DNA of 64,000 bases, from positions 14,337,349 through 14,401,348 of the forward strand of contig CM038918.1 in assembly GCA_021904315.1 (NCBI GenBank). The letters are read 5' to 3'. The stretch's first letter is position 1; every line of letters starts with the position of its first letter. The notes under the pieces were generated by a model. It saw only the letters and a list, made by a program, of their open reading frames with translations. It had not been told where the DNA came from and ran no database searches. The position numbers and the translations under genes are program-made. The DNA comes from Sphagnum magellanicum. Lineage: Eukaryota > Streptophyta > Sphagnopsida > Sphagnales > Sphagnaceae. This document shows, in pieces, positions 30,932 to 53,029 of this stretch.

Positions 30932-33900
30932 ATGTCAAATAGGAACCGCATGCCTGTGCCCCATGTGCTCAATGCACGGTCTGTGACTCAGAATGGTCCC
31001 AACAATCTGCGTCCCTTAGCATATGGGCATCAAGTGCGACCACAGCTGGTTGGGGCACCTCCAGTGCTGTCAGGGCCTCCACCTGGAATGCTTGAACAGA
31101 AAATCTCAACCCAACACAGTGAGATTCAGAGGTTGTTGACAGAGAATCAGCGGCTTGCAGCCACTCATGTAGCACTCAGGCAAGAGCTTGCTGCTGCACA
31201 GCAAGAAGTCCAGCGGTTGCAGGCATTGGTTGCAGGCATTCAGGCTGAGAAGGATGGCCAGATGAGAGCACTGTTGGACAAGTCAGGAAAGCTGGAAGCA
31301 GACTTGCGAGCAGCTGAACCACTCAAAGCAGAGCTCCACCAAGCTCAGACTGATTGCCAGAAGCTGCATGTACATTCTCAAGAGCTTGCACAGCAGGTGC
31401 GCACTGTCTCACAAGAGCTGCAGCGGGCTCGTGTGGAGGCCCAGCAGGTTCCTTCCATGCGTGCAGAACTTGATACTCTTCGACAGGAGCTGCAGCGAGC
31501 CAGGTCAGATTTCATTCTTGTGCTGGTCATTGATTTACAAAATTGCTCTGCTGTTTCAATCTAATCACGAAGAGTTGTTTCTAAAATACCTTTGTTTGTC
31601 ACCCAGTTTTGCTGTTTTGCTGCCTGGAGACTATGTCTCATGTCCTTGTGTAAAAAAGATTGGTCCTTCCAATTTGTTTGACACATTGCTATCCAAGTTC
31701 AGGGCATTAGAAACTAGAGAAACATTCACTGTTACAGCTCTATCTAAGATTTTCTTGTTTGTTTATCCTGGATTGTGGGCAGAGCGGCCTTTGAGCTGGA
31801 GAAGAAGGCAAATTCTGAGCAGTTGGAGCAGAGGCAGGCAATGGAGAAGAATTTGGTCAGCATGGCTAGAGATCTGGAGAAACTCCGTGCAGAACATACA
31901 AATGCTGAAAATAGAGCACATCACAATTCAGGTACTTGTGTAGATGCCACTAATGTAGCAAATGATAGTGCATAACAGGCAGTAATCTAAATGGAGATTT
32001 GATGTCACTGGCTGGTGTTTGATGCATCATTTGTTAGGTAGAATCTGGACTCTAGGTCTGTGATTTAACCAAGAGTAGGGAGAGTATTTTACATTGGTGT
32101 TACTCATTTGTGAATAGTGTACTGGTTATGAATGCCAGCTGTTGCATCATACAATGGAGGATATCCTGTCCAGGATGGAACTTATGGTACCATGTCACAG
32201 CAAGGTTATGGTGATGGCTATAGCATGCATTCCCAGGTATATCTATCCCATCCATCATTTGATTGTTTTTTGATCCAATAGCTGTTTCTTATTCTTCGAG
32301 CTTGGTGGTTTGGGAAGTGCCAACAAACTGGAGATATGGGTCTAGAACCACTCTGAGGTTCCCATTGAGAGTGGCAGTAAGGCATTTGCTTGCTTGATTC
32401 TTGAACATGAAGCTCATCCTTCTGCATGGTATGCAAGTGTCATTATGGGCTTGTGTCTGCTGAGTCAGGTGTGTAATGTCTATGGTCTATTTGCATACAT
32501 ATCCTTGTGATTGTGTAGATGTAGCACCATGACTATGGGGATTTTGTATGAATACTTCATGGATCCATGAGCTTAAAGCCACAAGAAAGATACCCATTAG
32601 TATCAGGAGAAGGGTATGTGTCCATAGCCCCCATAACTGAATGCTGTAGAGATTCTTCAGTAGGAGGTCAGCTTATCAGTATTAAGAAACAGCTTTGACA
32701 GATGAATTGGCCTCCTTATGGATGAGTGATACATGGCTAGGTAAACATTGCTGAAGACCTCAAAAAGCCCTGAGGTCTTCAGGGGGGGTTCTTGGCTGCC
32801 CCAAATGGAGAGTTTGTCCAAGAATAAAGCTTTTGATTAGCTATGCCTCTTTAGTGCTAGCTGACATCATGACTGAGTGCTTCCAGTTTCTCCATAAAAT
32901 TGGCATGCATTAATTGTCTGCTCTAAGTTATGATCAAATTTTCATAAACAGATCTATGCCCAGAGTGAAGGAAGTCTAGGGGGAATTATGGCAGCTGTTC
33001 ACTGTCCTTCACCATGAAGGTAAAAGGTTTGATAACAAGGTTATGATGCCTGTTTGGCCAGAACTGACACATTGGTGACCTTCATTTTGTGGAGTTTTCT
33101 CTGCGATGTCATTTAATGGGTTTTGGGCTGCTCCAAATGGAGGCCTGCCCAAGTGCCAATCCATTGACAGTCCACATGCCAATTGGATATGAATATATTG
33201 GTTCCCATATCTTAACAAGCTGCTGAGCATCCAGTTAGTTATTCTAACGAAATGGGTAACTACTGTGGACATACTGTGGTATAAAGGGCATGTATCATAA
33301 CTTGCCTTGAAACTCCTACCCTACCCTAAAATGCCTGTCAAGCAATTGCTTAGCTTTTATCATGAAGGCTGTATCATTCTCTATTCTCTAAAAGGAGGAT
33401 GTCTTGAAGGTTTGATCTATGTATGGATGTTCTTTTGTATGAAATCTCATGAAAGCAAGGTGGGTTGGATGTAATCTGTCTTGAGGACAAACAATGTTAG
33501 GAAGCAGGTCAGTGTCCCGCTTTGTCCTGTGCTCAAAGATAATGTTGAATTTTTTGGACTTATCATAAACAACTTGTGATATTGTTACCAGGAAGCAGTT
33601 CCTACAGGCAACAGCCTCCAGCAGGGTGCAAATCCAGGTGAATCAGACTTAAATAAATCACATGCGGAAGCCAACAAGTATATGACGGTGCAAGATGGGA
33701 ATAGTACTTATCATTCTGCCAATGGAAACTTAGTGCAAGATGCAAATCTATACAGACCACCTGACTGGAAACCTGCAGAGGAGTGGGCTATGCACAAGGC
33801 ACCAGATGGTAAACCCTTCTATCACAACCAGTTAACAGGAGCAACACAATGGGAAAAGCCAACATCCTTGGATTCTCAACATTATGTACAGGTGGCTCTT

Positions 33901-36900
33901 ACATCTCTTATGCTGTTTCTTGAGATGAATTGATTTACTGTGCATAAATCCTTCTAGACATATTGAAATTTCTGCTATCCTTGATTCTGTGGGTGTTCCT
34001 CAGACTTCACCATCCATTAGCTCTCTGCCTGGTCTTTGTCTTTCTGATAAATTTCCATATCTTTATGTGTTCTGAATTTGTAGATTTAAGATTTCCAAGA
34101 AAATTCTGAATGTAAGATTTGGGGTTATCTATATTGAAGCTGCCCTGAAGATGTGGTTTGTAAGTCACTGTCAAACATGTTGCTTCAGTGGGCAATTGGA
34201 CAAGTGAGATACTGTCACTATTGTTCATATTATGAACTTTTTATCTTCTAGTTCATGACAAACTGGTTCTTTATTTTTTTTGTTGCCCAGTCTCTTGTGT
34301 TTTGTTCTCACATGGTCCAGTGCAAGGTCATCTTACCGTTGAATTTGAGTTAGCTAGTGGTTGTATGGAGAGTTTTCAATATATATAAGGATATATGTCG
34401 ATCCTGATGATTTTATCTGCCTCATGTTGAATCAGCAAGAACAAACTTTGTCATTGTCCACCCTTGCAATTTGGGATCCTGATAATATGGGTTGTGAAGA
34501 TTTTTTGCTTTGTTTATGATTATACGTTTTTTCGCAAATTGATTGGCACATCTGTTTAACCTTCCCCCTAATACCATATACCTTGTCCATAATCCATACT
34601 GTCCTTACAATAGCAAACATATAATAGGACTGTCCATAGTATCAGCAAACAGGGTAGAGGTCCCTTTCAAGAATGATGAAGCTTGGATGTTCATGGTTGC
34701 AGGCTGCACAGGTCCCAGGGCAAGTCCTGGAGGGGGGTCATGTTCCTAGTGTTCAACCTAACAATCAAACCCAACAGGAGGTTTCTGTTGCACAGATGCA
34801 GCAAGGAGGAACACCAGCCCAGCAACAGCAGTTGACACAATATGCTCAACCTGTGCAAAATGCTGCACAGCATGCAGCAAGCTATACAGCTCATCCAGGA
34901 CCTCAGATGCAGCAGGCTGGGCTATATGTTCAGCATCCTGGAGTATACATGCCTCATCCAGGAATGTACATGCAGTCTGGGTCACACCTGCAGCAACCTG
35001 GAGTCTACATGCAGCAACCATTGACACAAACACCACCAGTTGCTGGTCAGATTCAGCAGCCTGGAGTCCCTCTCGTAGCACCAATTCCAGCTCCACTTGG
35101 TACTCAAATGCAACCACCCATCCTTCCATTGCAAGGGCAAGCTCTGCAATCCACACCTTCCACCCAGTTGCCCCAAGTTGTTCACTCCCCCTTGAATTAT
35201 GCAATGCCAGGGGTGATGGCACATCAGGTTCCAACACAGGCAAGAGGTCAGGTGCAGCATATCACACAGCCATCACAATTGCCTCCATTAATGCCAACTC
35301 CTGTTGGGCAGCAACCAATGCAGCAGTCTTCCTTGTCTCAACCTAATCAAATCTCTTCATCTAGACCTGGAGCTTACTCCTCTCAATCTCCACAACGACA
35401 GCAGCCAAACTTGCAGCAATCACAGGCCCACCCCCGTACACCAGCACAGGCTGCTACATCACAACCACAGTCACTACCTCAAGGACCCTCTCAGCCCTCA
35501 CACACTCCACATGGTACAAGCTCCACACCTTCAGTCTCACCCATCCTGTATTTCATCCTGTTCTGGTTGCTTCTTGGGCCATGCTTGGACATTACAAATC
35601 TTTTTTTCTGCTATGTTTATCTTCATTTCTGGAAGCAGTGCAGTATCTCAACTCCACATTACGCAAAAGCAGTGCAGATTCTGCTTCTACCCAGTCTTTC
35701 TCTGTACTGCATTCTATGTTGCATCATTTTAGAAATTGAATGTCAGTCATTTACCAGTTCTCTTGTGCGGGTCTAAAGCCTGAAGGTTCACATCATGGGA
35801 TCAGATTGTGCTGGTTTTGAAATGTTATGCTTGGGGTTGCTTTACTGGTGGGGGCAGTTTCTGCACCCCCTCTGATCCATCCAAGACCACAGATTTCTGA
35901 GACTCCTACTCCTGTTAAATCGGCTCCCCTACTTCCTCTCACTGCAACCAGTGGGCCTCAAGGTGACTGCCAATACCTGTTATGAGATCTACTCAAGATT
36001 AGTAAGATTGGTTTGGTTTTTTTGCAGACTGTTGAATTCAAAAAATTAATTGTTTCAGTTCTTCTTTCAAGTTTGTGAGGATTTACTGTCCTCACTGCTC
36101 TGCAAGTAGGACCTGCTAAGGACACTTACTGTGTTCTTATTATTGTCCCATAGTAGCTGCTAATGAATTGGCTGGACTGTTGAACAGGGGCCAATTTGTT
36201 TGTATTTGGCATTCCGGAAGACATGGGTGACAAGAAACTTGCAGATTTATTTTCTCCTTATGGTTCAGTTGTTTATGCCAAGGTTGGGGTGGAGAAGGAT
36301 ACAGGAAGGAATCGTACTTATGGTAAGTCTTCTGATATCTGGTTATCTTTTTGCTTTACTCTTGTCCACATACTATTGTGATCAAACTCTTTCCAGAGGC
36401 TGTAGTTATTTTTTCTGCTCATCTGTCATTCATGACTTTGCTCAGCTAAAGGTTATTTTCAGAGTATCTGATGACTGTGTAGTCCAGTCACTGGTCACAC
36501 TGTGGTTTGGTCAATGGCAAAGCCTTGAGTGTGACATACTGTAGGCACAACCTCTGGTCAGCAGATAGTATCAAGAAGTGGAGAAGCAGAAAGCTGATAA
36601 AGTGTGAGAGTTTCAGTCCTGTATAGAGAAGTTGAAGATGTCCTGCAGGAGACATCTTAACTGCATGAGTTCATTTTTTAATTTCTTGAGGTTGAATTTG
36701 GGGGTATGAGAGTTTTGCTTGCTTAGTACTTTCTACCCAGCTCAAAGAAACTTTTACCATTACTTCTTAAGTAATGGGTGGTGGCATTGGCTTCTTGTTG
36801 TTGATGGGAAGAGTGCTTGGATATTTGTGGATTGTGGTGGTGATATGGGATATTGTTACTCCAAGGAGTAATTGGGTCAATGGTGTTGTGTTCCCATCTT

Positions 36901-39450
36901 TTTCCTGGCATTGGTTATTTTGGCCCTGGCCAAATTTGAGCTATCTACATTAAACATGGCAATGGCAAGTTATGTTATGGAACCTTTAAAAAGTCATCTC
37001 TGCAGTATTCTATAGCTCTCCATCCTAGGGCCACATTTTACCTTTTGGCCCACTTCTGCCTGATAATACCAGTATTTTTTGTGCCCATACGAACAGTAAA
37101 CAATTGTCCTTATCTTAAAGATAGTGTAGTCCCTAGAGATCCAAGATCTGCTGCTTTGCAATTTCCATTTGCTTTTAAATTGATATTGACTGTTCAGATG
37201 TGCAATTCAAATCTTATCCCTGATACCAGAATTGTACACATCATCAAGGTATTTGCAACATGAGTACTGACTTCTTAGTTCTCAGATTCTGTAAGTGGGG
37301 AGCTTTTAAGCCCCATTTTCTTCTTTTGTCTGCTATATTCTGTTCTTTCTTCCCTATATGCCTCCTCTTTTGTTTTCAGTTTTTTCCCTCTGTGTTTCCC
37401 TTCTTTGCTGTAGGATGCTAGCCAGTATCATGGCTCAGTCTTCCCATTGCTTCCAGACTAGCAACAGAAGCTGGGTATGCAGTCTAGGCCTGTACCTGCT
37501 GCAGGGAGCTAATGAAGTCAATTGGGAAGTTTGTGATAGAAAGGTTGCAATAGAACCAAAATAAGAGTGTGAGAACATCCCCATGTCTTGATATGGGAAA
37601 AGACTGTAGATGCTGTCAGGTTCACATGAGAGTGGGAAAACATCATGTCCTGTCTGGCAGTCACTTTAAGTCCTATTTATTTTCTGTATCTTTTCTAGGT
37701 GGTCTACTTCTCATGATTGCTTGTGATTTGAGGACTTGGCTGTTGCAGATGAGTTGAACAGTGGTACTTGTCATACACTCTTGGTCCTAATTTGTTTGTT
37801 TCCCTAACATTTAGTGATTTTGATTCCTGAACAAACTAGATCACACAATGGTCATGTCAGGTTCCATATTCAGCATGATTGTTGTAACTGGCACAGAAGA
37901 AGGAAGAGTCAGGATTGTGGCCCTGGTTTCATCTCAATCTATCTTCATGTTAATTTCAAGGAGCAGTTTGAATCATTCAGCTTTGTTCCTTCACCTGCTG
38001 TAGAAAAGTTCATGCAGTTTGCTCTTGCATTTGAGGTTCAAACTTATTTTGGGAACACAGCAAGGATACAGTAGGTTGCTTGAAATTTCTGTATTTAACC
38101 TGCATGTTTATGGATCACCATTTGGGTACAGCCTCCAAATTTTGCATGCACCATTTCCCTCTTTTGCCTTCTCCTGCTCTCATAAGTTCTTTGTCTCTTT
38201 TCTGCTCTCTTTATGTCATTGGTCCTCTTATGCTTCCTCAAGATGTGAAGCACATGAAGATGTTGACCTCACTCACCACTCTGGATATACAATTGTATGT
38301 CTCCATTCCTTACTGCTCTTTCTTGGCCCTTTCACCAAAACCATTGTAGACCACTGCTATACAGACCTGTAGATGTTGCTGTTTTTGCCTCACTGCTATT
38401 TTAACGTTTATAGGTTTTGATGCATCATATTCTGTTTAGTGACAGAAGTTTTTATGAAGAATCAGATTGGTGAAGTCGTATGCATTCTTTGTCTGATTAT
38501 CTCACCATTTTGAAGGCATACCTTGAGGTACTTGGTTTTCAAGTGTAGCATCAGTAGGCATGTTCAAGTTTGAGATCAGAATTGTGGCTGTCCTTAAGAT
38601 TCCTCCTCTGCAGGGTTAGAGTTAAATTTTTCCAATGTGAGGGGATACTTTGCTAGGATAGCTTCTGAAGGTATTTGAGATCCGCAGGGTGTAAACCCTT
38701 CAGACTGCAGGGTTTACACTCTTCTGAACTCCAGTGCAAAGAGTTGGTTGATCTTTCTATCCTTTGAAATTGACTATATTATCTGGTACATAGTCAACCA
38801 GTTCTATAGTAGGGGGAGTGATGCAGTTCAAATGTCTCAAAATAGGTCTGCAGCTGAATTTGGCTTTGCTACAGGGAAGATGGCAACCTGTTCTTACTGC
38901 ACTGTATGTAAAAAATAAACCTACACATAAGATAATGAGCAGTTGGGGTGATTTTGAGCAAGTTAAGAGTCTGGGTTGATAGGAGTATGATAATACTCCT
39001 ATCAACCCAGACTCTTAACTTGCTCAAAATGGTGGTGGTGCATTGGGACACCTCAGAGTCATCCTGGAAGAGTAATGAACAGACAGTTTGAGGTAGATCT
39101 TGTTTCATTCCTTACTTTTTTCATAAGCAACCCATGGATTGTTAAGATGTGTGCAATCGGTAAACTGGTGTGCATCTGGGTTCGGGACACTGCATTGTCC
39201 TCAAGCAGGTTTTGTGTCCATGGACTCCTCACAAGCTGCAGAAGCAGCTATTCTTCAAGTGAACGGTATGTCCATCTCTGGCAAACGCATTAAAGTGGAG
39301 TTGAAGAGGGGAGAATCAGATGGCCACAGTCAGCACCAGCAACAACAGCAACAGCAACAACACTCCCAGCATCAAAATCCATCTGGTGGGGTTGGTCCTA
39401 CCAGATGGCATCATGGTCATACTGGAAATTCAGGCTACCGGCCTTACTAG
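30932..39450 (+). CDS. Fusion protein: FLX-like coiled coil, WW domain, Q/P-rich segment, RRM
   Basis: Eight exons: 30932-31503, 31783-31931, 32139-32236, 33592-33891, 34703-35513, 35858-35962, 36188-36322 and 39209-39450. All borders are GT/AG, phases agree, and the sum is 2412 bp for 803 residues plus stop. Residues ~53-240 are an FLX-family coiled coil ([39 protein letters not shown]). A WW domain spans ~335-366 (W338, Y350, W360, P363; [20 protein letters not shown]). Residues ~374-678 are rich in Gln, Pro, Met and Tyr. A single RRM spans ~679-757 (RNP2 LFVFGI, RNP1 RTYGFVSM, ending KRIKVELKR), closest in style to CELF/Bruno RRM3. The tail is Gln/His-rich. FLX proteins act in the FRIGIDA complex and FLX-LIKE 2 with FCA in 3'-end processing; a nuclear RNA-processing role is inferred. 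ATG 30932 was chosen because [11 protein letters not shown] matches FLX N-termini. Confidence 0.88.
32751..32782. repeat. Perfect hairpin, 12-bp stem, in intron 3
   Basis: CTGAAGACCTCA pairs exactly with TGAGGTCTTCAG across an 8-base loop (32763-32770). A related G-rich and CCAAATGGAG-containing stretch follows and recurs near 33110-33150 in the same intron. Confidence 0.8.
37293..37470 (+). repeat. Dispersed sequence, copy A, in intron 7
   Basis: Shares the landmarks GTGGGGAGCTTTTAA at the start and GCTAGCCAGTATCAT near the end with 43830-44040, in the same order and orientation. The middle is diverged but similarly T-rich. Likely a decayed dispersed element. Confidence 0.45.
38689..38719. 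repeat. Perfect hairpin, 11-bp stem, in intron 7
   Basis: GTGTAAACCCT (38689-38699) pairs exactly with AGGGTTTACAC (38709-38719) across a 9-base loop. Confidence 0.8.
38951..39030. repeat. Perfect 38-bp inverted repeat with a 4-base loop, in intron 7
   Basis: The arms 38951-38988 and 38993-39030 are exact reverse complements, with GATA between them. The pairing stops abruptly on both sides. The stem is transcribed as part of the last intron, 179 bases upstream of the final exon. It could be a small-RNA precursor, a fold-back insertion, or a template-switch product. Confidence 0.95.
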
Positions 39451-50207: not shown

Positions 50208-53029
50208 ATGATGAACCGCAAAGTGGGTAGCAGTGCTTCAGGGATGGCGGTAGCGGCTAAAGCAGCAAGAGCATGTGATGTTTGTGGTGTGCACAGAGCT
50301 AGATGGTACTGTGCAGCTGATGAAGCTTATATCTGTCATCCTTGTGACGCAAAAGTGCATGAAGCTAATTCCTTAGCTTCCCGCCATAACCGAGTCCTAC
50401 TGACGCCAAACAACCCCCCAAAACACAAGCAGCAGCAGCAGCAACATCGTCACCGCCATGAGCACCAAGCTGCTGGAGATTCTCAAGGTATGATGATGAA
50501 TTCAGCCCAAAAAATTAGCAGGAGATCGAATCCTGGTATGAGGATTTCCTCTCCGAATCTGAATCTGTTTGCTACAACAGGAAAAATCCCTGCTGAGAGA
50601 GCCAGCTTCGCTAAAACTTCTGGCAGGAAGCAAGAGCTTTATGCAAAAGTCAAGGTGGAGCCTGCTGGGGGAGGAGATGAATATATGGGAGGAAAGGGGA
50701 GTAATTGGCAAGCAGGGGTTCATGAAGTGCCAGCATTTGTTTCAATTTTCCAGGACCCATTGCCAGAGTTTCCCAGCAGCAAAGTAGTTGATGACACTCA
50801 AAATCATCATGTCCACCATGATGATGAACTCGGCAAAGAAAAAGAGGAAGAGGAAGAAGCTGTACCTGACCTTTTCCCCCGTCACTTCTATTTTGATGCC
50901 ACACTGGGACCACTGAAGGAAGACTCCCCAGGAGGATGTACCTTCTTGGGGGAAGAAATTCCAGGAATGGATGGTTATGAAAACAGCTACAAGTACATGG
51001 AGCCTGATCCTTCTTCTTTGGATTCAAAAGCTCATCACACTCCTTATGCTGAGGGGAGTTTGAGTTGTGCATTCAGGCCACCAGAAACAGATAATTTTAT
51101 GGGTGGTGCAGGTGCTGGTGGTTGTAGACAGAAGAAGAAACAGGAGGCAGTGGAGGATCTAGTAGGAGCAGCATATCCTCTGGAAGAAGGACTGACTGCT
51201 ACAGAAGCAGCAGCTGCTGCTAGAGCATGCCATGTGCCATCACTGAAGCTGAACTACAAGGAGGTGCTGTCAGCTTGCTCAGACCAAAGCCTCTGGACTG
51301 CACATGACAAACACCCTCAGATTGTTCCTGTTGACCCCAATGCTGATGCTGCAGTAAGTATTCATATGTTCTTCATCGCTGTTTGCAACTTGTTCTTCTT
51401 CTCATTGCTGCAAGACACAACTTGGTATTCTGGTTTGAACATAGTCTCAGCAGCTGGTTCATGGGGGTGTGAATTACCATTCCTGCAATTAACATGGGTT
51501 CTATCTATCCACATGCTTAGCTGAGCATCCACATCCTTCTCTCTTTCTTTCTCTCTCTGCAGGTTGTCTGTGAGCAAGGTTTGAGTGTGGCATGCATAAT
51601 AACCCTGACCAACAATTTTCTAGCTGGCCTTGAAATGGAGCTTGTCATCTATTTTCACTGTCTACTCCATCTTCATTTCATACTCCAGAAGACAAGATTG
51701 TAAGTTTTAGTTCAAGAGCAGGTGCTACTGCAGACAAAACCTTTAATTTAGGAAACACAGAGGATCCTTTCTTTTTTTGCTATGAGAAATGGAAGCTGCA
51801 AGTTGGTACAGATGCTGCTGCTGCTGCAGAAGAAACCTTTGATTTGGAAGCACAGAAGGGTCCTGTCTTTTGCAAAGAGAACAGGAAGCTGTAAGTTGGA
51901 AGAGGTTTTATCATATTATCAAGCAGGAGGAGAAAGACTTGCCAACTTCCTGATCATAGAATTTAGCAAGCCTCAATTCTGTCTGACCTAATGTGAAATT
52001 GGAAACCTCAAGACTCTAATCTTTAAGCATCAAACAAGCCCGATTGAAATGTGCTAGAAACTCACAGTGCAGATATTGTATAATGGGTTGTTTAGATTTT
52101 GGGCTGGTTATTGTATATACTATTGTGCACCCACTGTTGGGAGCTCATGAAATCATTGGGTAGTCATGGCAGCTTGTCATTGCATTTTGTGATGAAGGTG
52201 ATGATGGCCTGACACTTTTACAAGTGAATCTCATAAGGTTATGACTGCACTCATTGTTATGTTGCTGCCAAATTGTTATTGTGGAGATTTCTCTGCAATT
52301 CTATATGTATATATAGAGGGAGAGGGAGTCACAAACAGTAAGGTTATTTTACTACTACTATCTCCTATTGCAGAGGTAGGTGGTGTGTCAACAAACAAGT
52401 CTGTTATGGCGACTAAAGTTGATGCCAAAAAATTGTTGCTCCTCCATGTATGTCTGCAGGGAAACATGGACCTTGGTTTTGTTCCAGACCTAAATTTTGG
52501 GCCACAGGAAATAGCAGTGACCAGGGATGATTGTTACAGTGGAGGAGGAAGAAGGGAGGCTTCTTTGTTGAGATATAAGGAGAAGCGGCGTGCACGTCTT
52601 TTTTCTAAGAAGATTAGGTATGAAGTGCGCAAGTTGAATGCAGAACAGCGGCCCCGCATGAAGGTTAGTTTCAATCTCCATTTGTTTAATTTGAGCTTCT
52701 TTCTGAGCCTTTTTTCTTTCTTGGATAATTTATTCCCTTGAAACATGTGCTCTTGGATTATTCAGCAGGCAACTCAATTGCTTCTTCCATCTCCTTACCA
52801 GAGAGAGTGAATGTGTTGACTGTCTTACAACTTTCTCGCTAAAAAGTTGCGAGAATGAATTCTTGTCCATAGTAGTGCAATAATTCCTTGGTAAAATCGA
52901 CAAACCTGAAACTCAATTATTGAGATATAGCTTAGCTTTGACATGACATGATTTGGTGTTGTTTTCCAGGGTAGGTTTGTGAAGAAAACTCAGTGGAGTA
53001 CACCTGAAGATGGGTTTGGTAGGTACTGA
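50208..53029 (+). CDS. CONSTANS-like transcription factor, one B-box plus CCT (COL6/7/8/16 type)
   Basis: Three exons, 50208-51353, 52460-52663 and 52970-53029, all phase 0; 469 residues. The B-box has its full ligand set: C23, C26, C35, D38, C43, C46, H51 and H60. There is no second B-box. An acidic middle follows, then the motif [18 protein letters not shown] shared by the COL6/COL16 subgroup. The CCT domain (~414-456; [39 protein letters not shown]) is split by the last intron. CCT domains bind NF-YB/YC to form a CO-box DNA-binding complex; B-boxes mediate protein contacts. The family links light and clock signals to development. ATG 50208 was chosen over an upstream in-frame GTG. Intron 1 is 1.1 kb and holds a tandem duplication and a segment shared with the cyclophilin locus. 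Confidence 0.93.
51724..51899 (+). repeat. Tandem duplication inside COL intron 1, open in one frame
   Basis: Units 51724-51806 and 51821-51899 share GCAGAxxAAACCTTTxATTTxG, CACAGA, and the end AAGCTGxAAGTTGG. One frame is open across both copies, with a TAA near the end of the second. It could be a decayed or alternative exon; the main gene model skips it. Confidence 0.6.
52187..52315 (+). repeat. Segment shared with the cyclophilin locus, copy A
   Basis: Aligns at roughly 80-85% by eye with the minus strand of 55050-55185, including TCTCATAAGG, ATGACTGCACTCATTGT and CAAATTGT. A shorter third copy of its right end (GTGGAGATTTCTCTGCAAT) lies on the minus strand near 54370-54400. Confidence 0.65.

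What the first reader, a model, noticed from the sequence alone, without database searches (positions are those of the whole stretch)
30932..39450. A single gene joins an FLX-like coiled coil to a WW domain and an RRM
Seen: eight exons, all with GT/AG borders and compatible phases, total 2412 bp, encoding FLX coil, WW, Q/P-rich and CELF-type RRM modules in one frame. Exon 3 (FLX tail) and exon 4 (WW) both meet in phase 0. Known: in Arabidopsis, FLX-family proteins control flowering time, and the coiled-coil FLX-LIKE 2 promotes condensates of FCA, an RRM/RRM/WW protein acting in 3'-end processing. Inference: this is a natural fusion of partner activities, with domain order unlike FCA (WW before a single RRM). 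I do not know of this architecture, but it may exist in other non-flowering plants.
Basis: partly seen in the sequence, partly recalled or inferred. Interest (0 to 1): 0.88.

Follow-up and report, generated by a model that had tools for sequence, protein, structure and literature searches.

The report
Ancient FLX-WW-RRM gene, lost in seed plants
A peat-moss gene joins a flowering-regulator-type coiled coil to a protein-binding and an RNA-binding domain; the same three-part protein occurs from a stonewort alga to ferns but was not seen in seed plants, and a decayed sister copy shows how a short, coil-only form can arise.

Summary
Eight GT/AG exons give one 2412-bp frame (803 aa) with an FLX coil, a WW domain and one RRM. 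It is not a local fusion: the same order occurs in mosses, ferns, Selaginella and Chara, with a similar C-terminal end. Of 14 named seed-plant hits, 0 carry a WW or RRM. The RRM is not FCA-like: it is 52% identical to the host's own BRN/CELF-type RRM3 and 21-31% to FCA RRMs. Two FCA-type genes lie elsewhere in this genome.

The main new point is a paralog on C7. Its coil exons are about 85% identical. It has a short terminal exon typical of coil-only FLX proteins and, downstream, decayed remnants of the exon 4, 5 and 7 regions. So the ancestral locus probably carried two alternative 3' ends, divided between the two copies. The coil tree rejects a single clade of long forms. Three long-type sequences stop inside the RRM-splitting intron; Arabidopsis FCA polyadenylates in its own intron 3. 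Function is inferred, not shown.

The parts
30932..31503 (+). Exon 1: start codon, N-terminal segment and most of the FLX coiled coil (coil from about residue 52)
   Evidence: splice and frame; homology
31783..31931 (+). Exon 2: end of the FLX coil
32139..32236 (+). Exon 3: post-coil [10 protein letters not shown] segment; phase-0 end, matched in the short C7 form
32237..33591 (+). Intron 3; the short terminal exon present at this place in the C7 paralog was not found here
33592..33891 (+). Exon 4, with the WW domain at 33778-33861
   Evidence: best PDB relatives PRPF40A and TCERG1
34703..35513 (+). Exon 5: Q/P-rich linker
35858..35962 (+). Exon 6: linker with the [11 protein letters not shown] motif, also seen in P0003, P0046, P0005 and partly in Chara
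36188..36322 (+). Exon 7: first half of the RRM (RNP2 LFVFGI), from 36196; ends inside RNP1 in phase 1
36323..39208 (+). Intron 7, the longest (2886 bp), splitting RNP1 at the codon where BRN RRM3 and FCA RRM1/RRM2 genes of this genome are also split; reading on into it gives a stop at 36381
   Evidence: P0001, P0004 and P0046 end this way
38951..39030 (.). 38-nt perfect inverted repeat with 4-nt loop inside intron 7, single copy in the genome
39209..39450 (+). Exon 8: second half of the RRM (to 39294), Q/H run and conserved C-terminal GPTRW...GYRPY tail (39382-39447), stop

Best explanation
This is the long form of an ancient streptophyte FLX gene: coil, WW, Q/P-rich linker, one CELF/BRN-RRM3-type RRM and a conserved GPxRW...PY tail. 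SHOWN: the anatomy; its presence from Chara to ferns; a coil-only paralog in the same genome with its own terminal exon plus decayed pieces of the long form's later exons. INFERRED, strongly for Sphagnum: the ancestral locus had two alternative 3' ends, a short FLX tail and a WW-RRM set. After duplication C12 (this gene) kept the long set and C7 the short exon. INFERRED, weaker: the same sorting happened in other lineages, and seed plants kept only short forms. MECHANISM (inferred): the coil self-associates. The WW, nearest in sequence to those of PRPF40A and TCERG1, docks a proline-rich RNA-processing protein (FY is a candidate). The RRM holds nascent RNA, and the Q/P linker promotes clustering. 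One chain would thus hold activities that Arabidopsis divides between FLL2 and FCA. The intron splitting the RRM may serve as an off-switch: stopping there yields a protein with half an RRM.
For: Gene model; domains. In one search, 17 of 43 hits carry both WW and RRM and 22 of 43 carry WW; the 9 named ones of these 22 are Ceratodon, Adiantum (2 species), Ceratopteris, Diphasiastrum (3 proteins), Selaginella and Chara. W338, W360, P363 of the WW and the last Y are invariant in 12 of 12 rows that I chose for having both domains. RRM tree: 10 of 10 FLX RRMs in one group (86/92, not starred; 88% of bootstrap trees) next to BRN RRM3. C7 paralog: coil exons 86%, 88% and 81% identical, dN/dS 0.17 against C12; short exon at L021:4897-5004, joined to exon 3 in P0049 (35 members); remnants in order on the same strand: exon 4 region 66.5%, exon 5 end with intron 5 70%, exon 7 region 78% nucleotide identity, with stops and a frame shift. 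No short exon in window intron 3. One clade of 18 long or WW forms rejected (p 2.7e-54; p 3e-50 after dropping 4 doubtful rows, moss long forms alone p 0.0085). The FLL2 coiled-coil protein is needed for large FCA condensates, and FCA promotes polyadenylation in its own intron 3 (abstract and passages of PMC11962161).
Against: No experiment or read data in reach. No Sphagnum sequence seen across 36322/39209. P0001 starts as if intron 1 were retained, so its run into intron 7 may be incomplete splicing. Within-lineage gene conversion of the coil could also mix long and short forms on the coil tree. No living locus with both intact 3' ends was seen (no second plant genome could be searched). Aromatics at RNP2 position 2 and RNP1 position 5 are both missing in 13 of 19 complete long forms, including Adiantum, Ceratopteris and Selaginella, so RNA binding cannot be taken as general. 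Absence in seed plants rests on word-based searches with candidate caps, length limits and partly listed hits. The condensate, FY and RNA steps are analogy.
Confidence: 0.6

Rival explanations
1. The dual 3' end never existed in one gene. A short FLX gene and a long FLX gene stood in tandem, or were joined by unequal exchange; C7 is a short gene followed by the decayed tail of a neighbouring long gene.
For: About 3.3 kb separates the short exon from the exon 4 remnant in C7. Ceratodon, Diphasiastrum, Adiantum and Ceratopteris carry long or WW forms and short forms under separate gene names.
Against: No second coil was found between the short exon and the remnants in C7. Both ends of window intron 3 align to C7 on either side of the short exon, as one split intron would. 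C7 and C12 coils are sisters (98/95).
Confidence: 0.2
2. Ancient separate long and short genes, with the coil homogenised by gene conversion inside each lineage.
For: Would also give interleaving on the coil tree while the RRM stays one group.
Against: C12-C7 similarity runs on through introns 1-2 and some upstream sequence at 74%, so it is not limited to coil exons, and C7 carries long-form remnants.
Confidence: 0.15
3. The protein is a cytoplasmic or general BRN/CELF-like mRNA regulator in which the coil only dimerises it; the link with FLL2 and FCA is coincidence.
For: RRM nearest to BRN/CELF RRM3; FCA-type genes exist separately in the same genome.
Against: The WW is nearest to those of PRPF40A and TCERG1, nuclear proteins by recalled knowledge; the coil is FLX-type, known from nuclear regulators (recalled; FLL2 in nuclear condensates).
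Confidence: 0.3
4. Annotation chimera: two adjacent genes wrongly joined.
For: The public S. balticum model P0002 joins this coil to a downstream CCT gene, so bad joins occur at this locus.
Against: P0001 crosses the coil-WW and WW-RRM junctions; P0003 (734 aa, contig 2999 bases) and P0005 (703 aa, contig 2875 bases) encode the whole on contigs too short for introns of this size; the order recurs in Chara.
Confidence: 0.02

Closest known systems
FLX family (FLX, FLX-like 1-4) of flowering plants, in particular FLX-LIKE 2 (FLL2)
   Same: Homologous coil, 47% identity to Coffea FLX-like 2 at E 2.4e-62.
   Different: The named flowering-plant hits show no WW or RRM (0 of 14 named seed-plant hits); most short forms shown end in RR (17 of 22), while this gene ends in GPTRW...GYRPY and lacks the short terminal exon.
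FCA (RRM-RRM-WW)
   Same: Has RRM, WW and Q-rich parts; an intron at the same RNP1 codon and phase; the FCA-FLL2 partnership is known in Arabidopsis (PMC11962161).
   Different: Two RRMs before the WW; no FLX coil (recalled for Arabidopsis); its moss RRMs are only 21% and 31% identical to this one; separate FCA-type genes exist in this genome.
BRN (Bruno-like) / CELF proteins
   Same: RRM3 is 52% identical, with an intron at the same codon and phase; CELF1/CELF2 RRM3 are the best matches with a single stretch in the PDB.
   Different: Three RRMs by recalled knowledge (two seen), no coil, no WW (recalled).
PRPF40A / FBP11 and TCERG1 WW domains
   Same: Closest WW sequences with solved structures (E 2e-12 to 6e-12 over two stretches).
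   Different: Tandem WW plus FF-domain proteins (recalled); no FLX coil.

Membership tests
FLX family | Homologous FLX coiled coil | tested here: met
   689 proteins at E <= 1e-10 with the coil as query; of the 120 listed many are named FLX-like 1, 2 or 3
FLX family | Coil-only protein with the short tail (GAYDMQR-like, mostly RR end) | tested here: not met
   This gene goes on to WW and RRM and ends in RPY; the short exon is not found in intron 3. C7 meets it in part (ends ...VQRHLGMPHVRR).
FLX family | Acts in the FRIGIDA complex, or (FLL2) in FCA condensates | not testable with these tools
   Needs experiments; the FLL2 role was read in PMC11962161 passages, the FRIGIDA-complex role in a search-listed abstract (PMC9176254)
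FCA | Two RRMs followed by a WW | tested here: not met
   One RRM, after the WW
FCA | RRM sequence closest to FCA RRM1/RRM2 | tested here: not met
   21% and 31% identity; a starred branch sets FCA RRMs apart
FCA | Intron inside RNP1, phase 1 | tested here: met
   Same codon and phase, but BRN RRM3 has it too, so it marks the wider RRM class
BRN/CELF | RRM3-type sequence | tested here: met
   52% identity to C17 and C19 BRN-like RRM3; CELF1/2 RRM3 E about 1e-23, HuD close behind at 2.6e-22
BRN/CELF | Three-RRM architecture | tested here: not met
   One RRM only
Streptophyte FLX-WW-RRM long form (as defined here) | Coil, WW, linker, RRM, terminal PY/SY in that order | tested here: met
   12 of 12 aligned rows, chosen for having both domains; 11 end in PY, Selaginella in SY

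The most novel reading that the evidence does not exclude
The ancestral streptophyte FLX locus encoded two proteins by alternative last exons: a coil-only scaffold and a coil-WW-RRM protein that was itself a complete condensate-forming 3'-end-processing factor. Lineages sorted the two outputs into separate genes again and again. Seed plants discarded the long output and rebuilt the link in trans as the FLL2-FCA partnership. The RNP1 intron of this RRM class is an old intronic-polyadenylation switch used by both this gene and FCA.
Probability: 0.25. Interest if true: 0.82.

Novelty: new variant of a known kind. Interest (0 to 1): 0.68.

Why it matters
FLX-like proteins are described as coil-only flowering regulators (recalled, and in the papers listed), and how a coil-only protein (FLL2) came to drive condensates of the RNA-binding protein FCA is, as far as I know, unexplained. 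Here is a one-chain relative that carries coil, WW and RRM together, in plants without flowers and in a charophyte alga. Mosses that can be gene-edited could then test what FLX proteins did before flowering existed. The C7 copy is a clear fossil record of how alternative 3' ends can be divided between duplicate genes.

Tried and rejected
Rejected: (1) an FCA origin of the RRM. (2) A chimera of two genes. (3) The S. balticum model P0002 as evidence of a coil-CCT protein: its C-terminal part maps to a CCT gene at 51162-53026, so I take it as a merged model. (4) A duplication that took the CCT gene along: none of 17 CCT matches in the genome lies on C7. (5) P0054 as a short form: it ends in other letters after exon 3, without the short tail; it was removed, with Calypogeia, Selaginella and Closterium, and the AU test was repeated. 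(6) A WW in the C7 paralog: none found. (7) First splice choices at 32138 and 35857 gave stops and were corrected by one base. (8) A remnant of exon 6 in C7: the alignment there covers intron 5 and only about the first 19 bases of exon 6, so I do not count it. (9) Exon 8 in C7: only chance-level matches.

Led nowhere: structure prediction (not accepted). Literature: the listings of searches showed no paper on an FLX-WW-RRM protein; only open-licence PMC is held and most listings showed a part (for instance 20 of 276, 20 of 339), so absence is weak. Taxa of the unnamed lgn, jgi and eukprot proteins could not be identified. No second plant genome was in reach.

Row choices: the coil tree used 58 rows picked by me from 165 proteins seen by then, plus the window. 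The AU group was set by architecture, but Chara and Selaginella were left out of it after I had seen the tree, and the moss-only test was also chosen after seeing it. The RRM tree used 10 of the 19 complete long forms counted, 2 BRN and 2 FCA RRMs; P0001, P0004 and P0046 stop at RNP1 and were left out.

Full report
ORIGIN OF THE WINDOW. The window lies on C12 of a 439-Mb genome of 31 contigs. Its protein matches Sphagnum balticum P0002 (95% over 40% of the query) and the JGI protein P0001 (99% over 64%), so I take it as peat moss (inference).

THE GENE. Pfam places a WW at 336-363 and an RRM at 682-752. Exon 3 ends and exon 4 begins in phase 0. The exon 7/8 junction splits a glycine codon of RNP1 in phase 1. 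RNP2 is LFVFGI and RNP1 RTYGFVSM, with aromatics at the usual contact positions (the positions are recalled knowledge).

TRANSCRIPT-LIKE SUPPORT. P0001 matches exons 2 to 7 in order and then reads into intron 7 (letters). P0003 (734 aa, contig 2999 bases, 52% identity over 94% of the query) carries the whole protein, including the 7/8 junction, and ends in GPTRW...GYRPY like the window. P0005 encodes 703 aa on a 2875-base contig. The 36322/39209 junction was not seen in Sphagnum itself.

PHYLOGENETIC SPREAD. Of 43 hits (only the 7996 candidates sharing most words were scored), 22 carry a WW and 17 carry WW plus RRM by precomputed Pfam. Nine of the 22 have an organism name, none of them a seed plant: Ceratodon, Adiantum capillus-veneris, A. 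nelumboides, Ceratopteris, Diphasiastrum (three proteins), Selaginella, Chara. The other 13 are unnamed. Fourteen hits are named seed plants; 0 of 14 carry a WW or RRM. With the coil alone as query, 689 proteins match and 120 were listed; none of the 120 shows a WW or RRM (the length window was 150-478 aa, so most long forms were out of range). Gymnosperm hits (Picea, Cryptomeria, Taxus, and two Gb_ proteins that I take as Ginkgo) are short forms. A search with the RRM-plus-tail part of P0005 gave 7 hits, 5 of them WW-RRM proteins and 2 of another RRM family. Twelve full-length long forms, chosen for having both domains, align throughout, with W338, H341, G346, W360 and P363 of the WW, six RRM-region glycines and the last Y invariant. 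The Diphasiastrum models and A. nelumboides P0029 have a WW but no RRM match; I cannot tell loss from annotation.

WHERE THE RRM COMES FROM. In the PDB the best relatives with a single matched stretch are CELF1 and CELF2 RRM3 (E about 1e-23). A PABP entry scores higher with three stretches, and HuD is close behind with two. In the host genome the nearest RRMs are two BRN-like genes on C17 and C19. The RRM tree of 14 rows puts 10 of 10 FLX RRMs in one group (86/92, not starred; 88% of bootstrap trees), BRN RRM3 next, and FCA RRM1/2 apart on a starred branch. Identities to the window RRM are 52% (BRN) and 21% and 31% (FCA). The RNP1 intron is at the same codon and phase in the window gene, BRN RRM3, FCA RRM1 and FCA RRM2.

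SEPARATE FCA AND FLX GENES. L034 (C6) and L036 (C7) carry RRM, RRM, Q-rich and WW exons with FCA-like sequence (KLFVGSVPR, KDKRTG-QQG, KLFVGSLN, GYKYYYN). The FCA identification by these words is from recalled knowledge of FCA. A coil-only FLX paralog lies at C7:16746490-16747819.

THE C7 PARALOG. Exons 1-3 are 86%, 88% and 81% identical in protein, and dN/dS between the copies over these 273 codons is 0.17 with dS 0.43. A terminal exon at L021:4897-5004 encodes QMLYTLENGVPYAAAPAPTWAPNNVQRHLGMPHVRR. P0049, a JGI protein standing for 35 sequences, joins exon 3 to it. A related tail (often ENG, W-GAYDMQR, and RR at the end in 17 of the 22 short forms shown) recurs in coil-only FLX of mosses, lycophytes, ferns, gymnosperms and flowering plants. 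Downstream, on the same strand and in order, come remnants of the exon 4 region (66.5% nucleotide identity; WW part gone), the end of exon 5 with intron 5 (70%, stops and deletions) and exon 7 (78%, frame shift). Of exon 6 about the first 19 bases align; exon 8 was not found. In the window, intron 3 aligns to both sides of the C7 interval but has nothing like the short exon (local scores no better than shuffles). The simplest reading is one ancestral locus with two terminal exon sets, each copy having lost the other's set. That is the duplication-degeneration-complementation pattern (recalled term).

TREE OF COILS. In the 59-row coil tree the window and the C7 paralog are sisters (98/95) and long and short forms interleave; starred branches force at least 3 changes for the short label and 4 for the long one. 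Holding 18 long or WW forms together costs 155 log-likelihood units (p 2.7e-54). After dropping four doubtful rows the cost is 76 (p 3e-50), and for the three moss long forms 13.6 (p 0.0085). The labels were set by architecture before the tree, but Chara and Selaginella were left out of the tested group, and the moss test chosen, after I had seen it. Together with the single RRM group this speaks for one gain and repeated losses or divisions. Gene conversion remains a rival.

THE RNP1 INTRON. Three long-type sequences stop by reading into the intron that splits the RRM: P0001 (Sphagnum), P0004 (Ceratodon gene model) and P0046 (a EukProt Trinity transcript whose ORF begins after the coil). That is 3 of the 21 database sequences aligned, and 3 of the 4 that I take as moss-like; P0003 is the exception. 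None of the fern-like ones (P0007-P0016, P0020) does. P0001 also begins at the first methionine expected if intron 1 is retained (compare), so incomplete splicing is possible. In Arabidopsis, FCA promotes polyadenylation in its own intron 3, giving a truncated transcript (passages of PMC11962161, and PMC7457121). In the moss FCA genes the RRM1 RNP1 intron looks like the third coding intron (exon count by eye); whether Arabidopsis intron 3 is the same one I could not check. Intron 7 also holds a unique 38-nt perfect inverted repeat (z -12.2).

FUNCTION. Shown: the anatomy only. Inferred: coil self-association; WW docking to a proline-rich co-transcriptional factor, since the WW is nearest to those of PRPF40A and TCERG1 and FY binds FCA through proline-containing motifs (passage of PMC6959997; that this involves the FCA WW is recalled); RNA binding by the RRM; clustering through the Q/P linker. 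Against a uniform RNA-binding role, 13 of 19 complete long forms (P0007-P0016, P0020, P0037, P0045) lack an aromatic at both RNP2 position 2 and RNP1 position 5, whereas the window, P0003, P0005, P0006, P0044 and Chara keep both. Weakening of the RRM before its loss in seed plants is one reading.

VERDICT. A real and old long form of a known family, not described in any listing I saw, with an unusually clear case of divided 3' ends next to it in the same genome. It is not an FCA fusion. Papers: PMC11962161 was seen as abstract and passages, PMC7457121 and PMC6959997 as passages, all others as search listings.

Noticed in passing
38951-39030: Perfect 38-nt inverted repeat with a 4-nt loop in intron 7 (MFE -71.2 kcal/mol for 38930-39050, z -12.2), single copy in the genome; could be a foldback, a small-RNA precursor or a splicing element.
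   Followed up: partly
51162-53026: CCT-domain gene downstream on the same strand. The S. balticum model P0002 merges it with this FLX gene, and a Closterium model (P0042) also merges a CCT protein with an FLX coil in the opposite order; a possible old neighbourhood.
   Followed up: partly
L021:2491-9268 (G000 C7:16746490-16753267): Coil-only FLX paralog with an intact short terminal exon and decayed remnants of the long form's exon 4, 5 and 7 regions.
   Followed up: yes
L034 and L036: Two FCA-type genes (C6 and C7), each with phase-1 introns in RNP1 of both RRMs; the RRM1 intron is about 1.7-1.8 kb long.
   Followed up: partly
P0007, P0008, P0012-P0014, P0016, P0020: Fern-like long forms have an extra coil stretch repeating [11 protein letters not shown], an internal lengthening of the coil, and degenerate RNP aromatics.
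   Followed up: partly
P0018, P0024, P0053: The C-terminal repeats (GYDAQRG in Coffea FLX-like 2 and in unnamed P0024, GAYDVNRT in a Diphasiastrum protein) look like expansions of the short-tail motif GAYDMQR, suggesting FLL2 stems from the short form.
   Followed up: no
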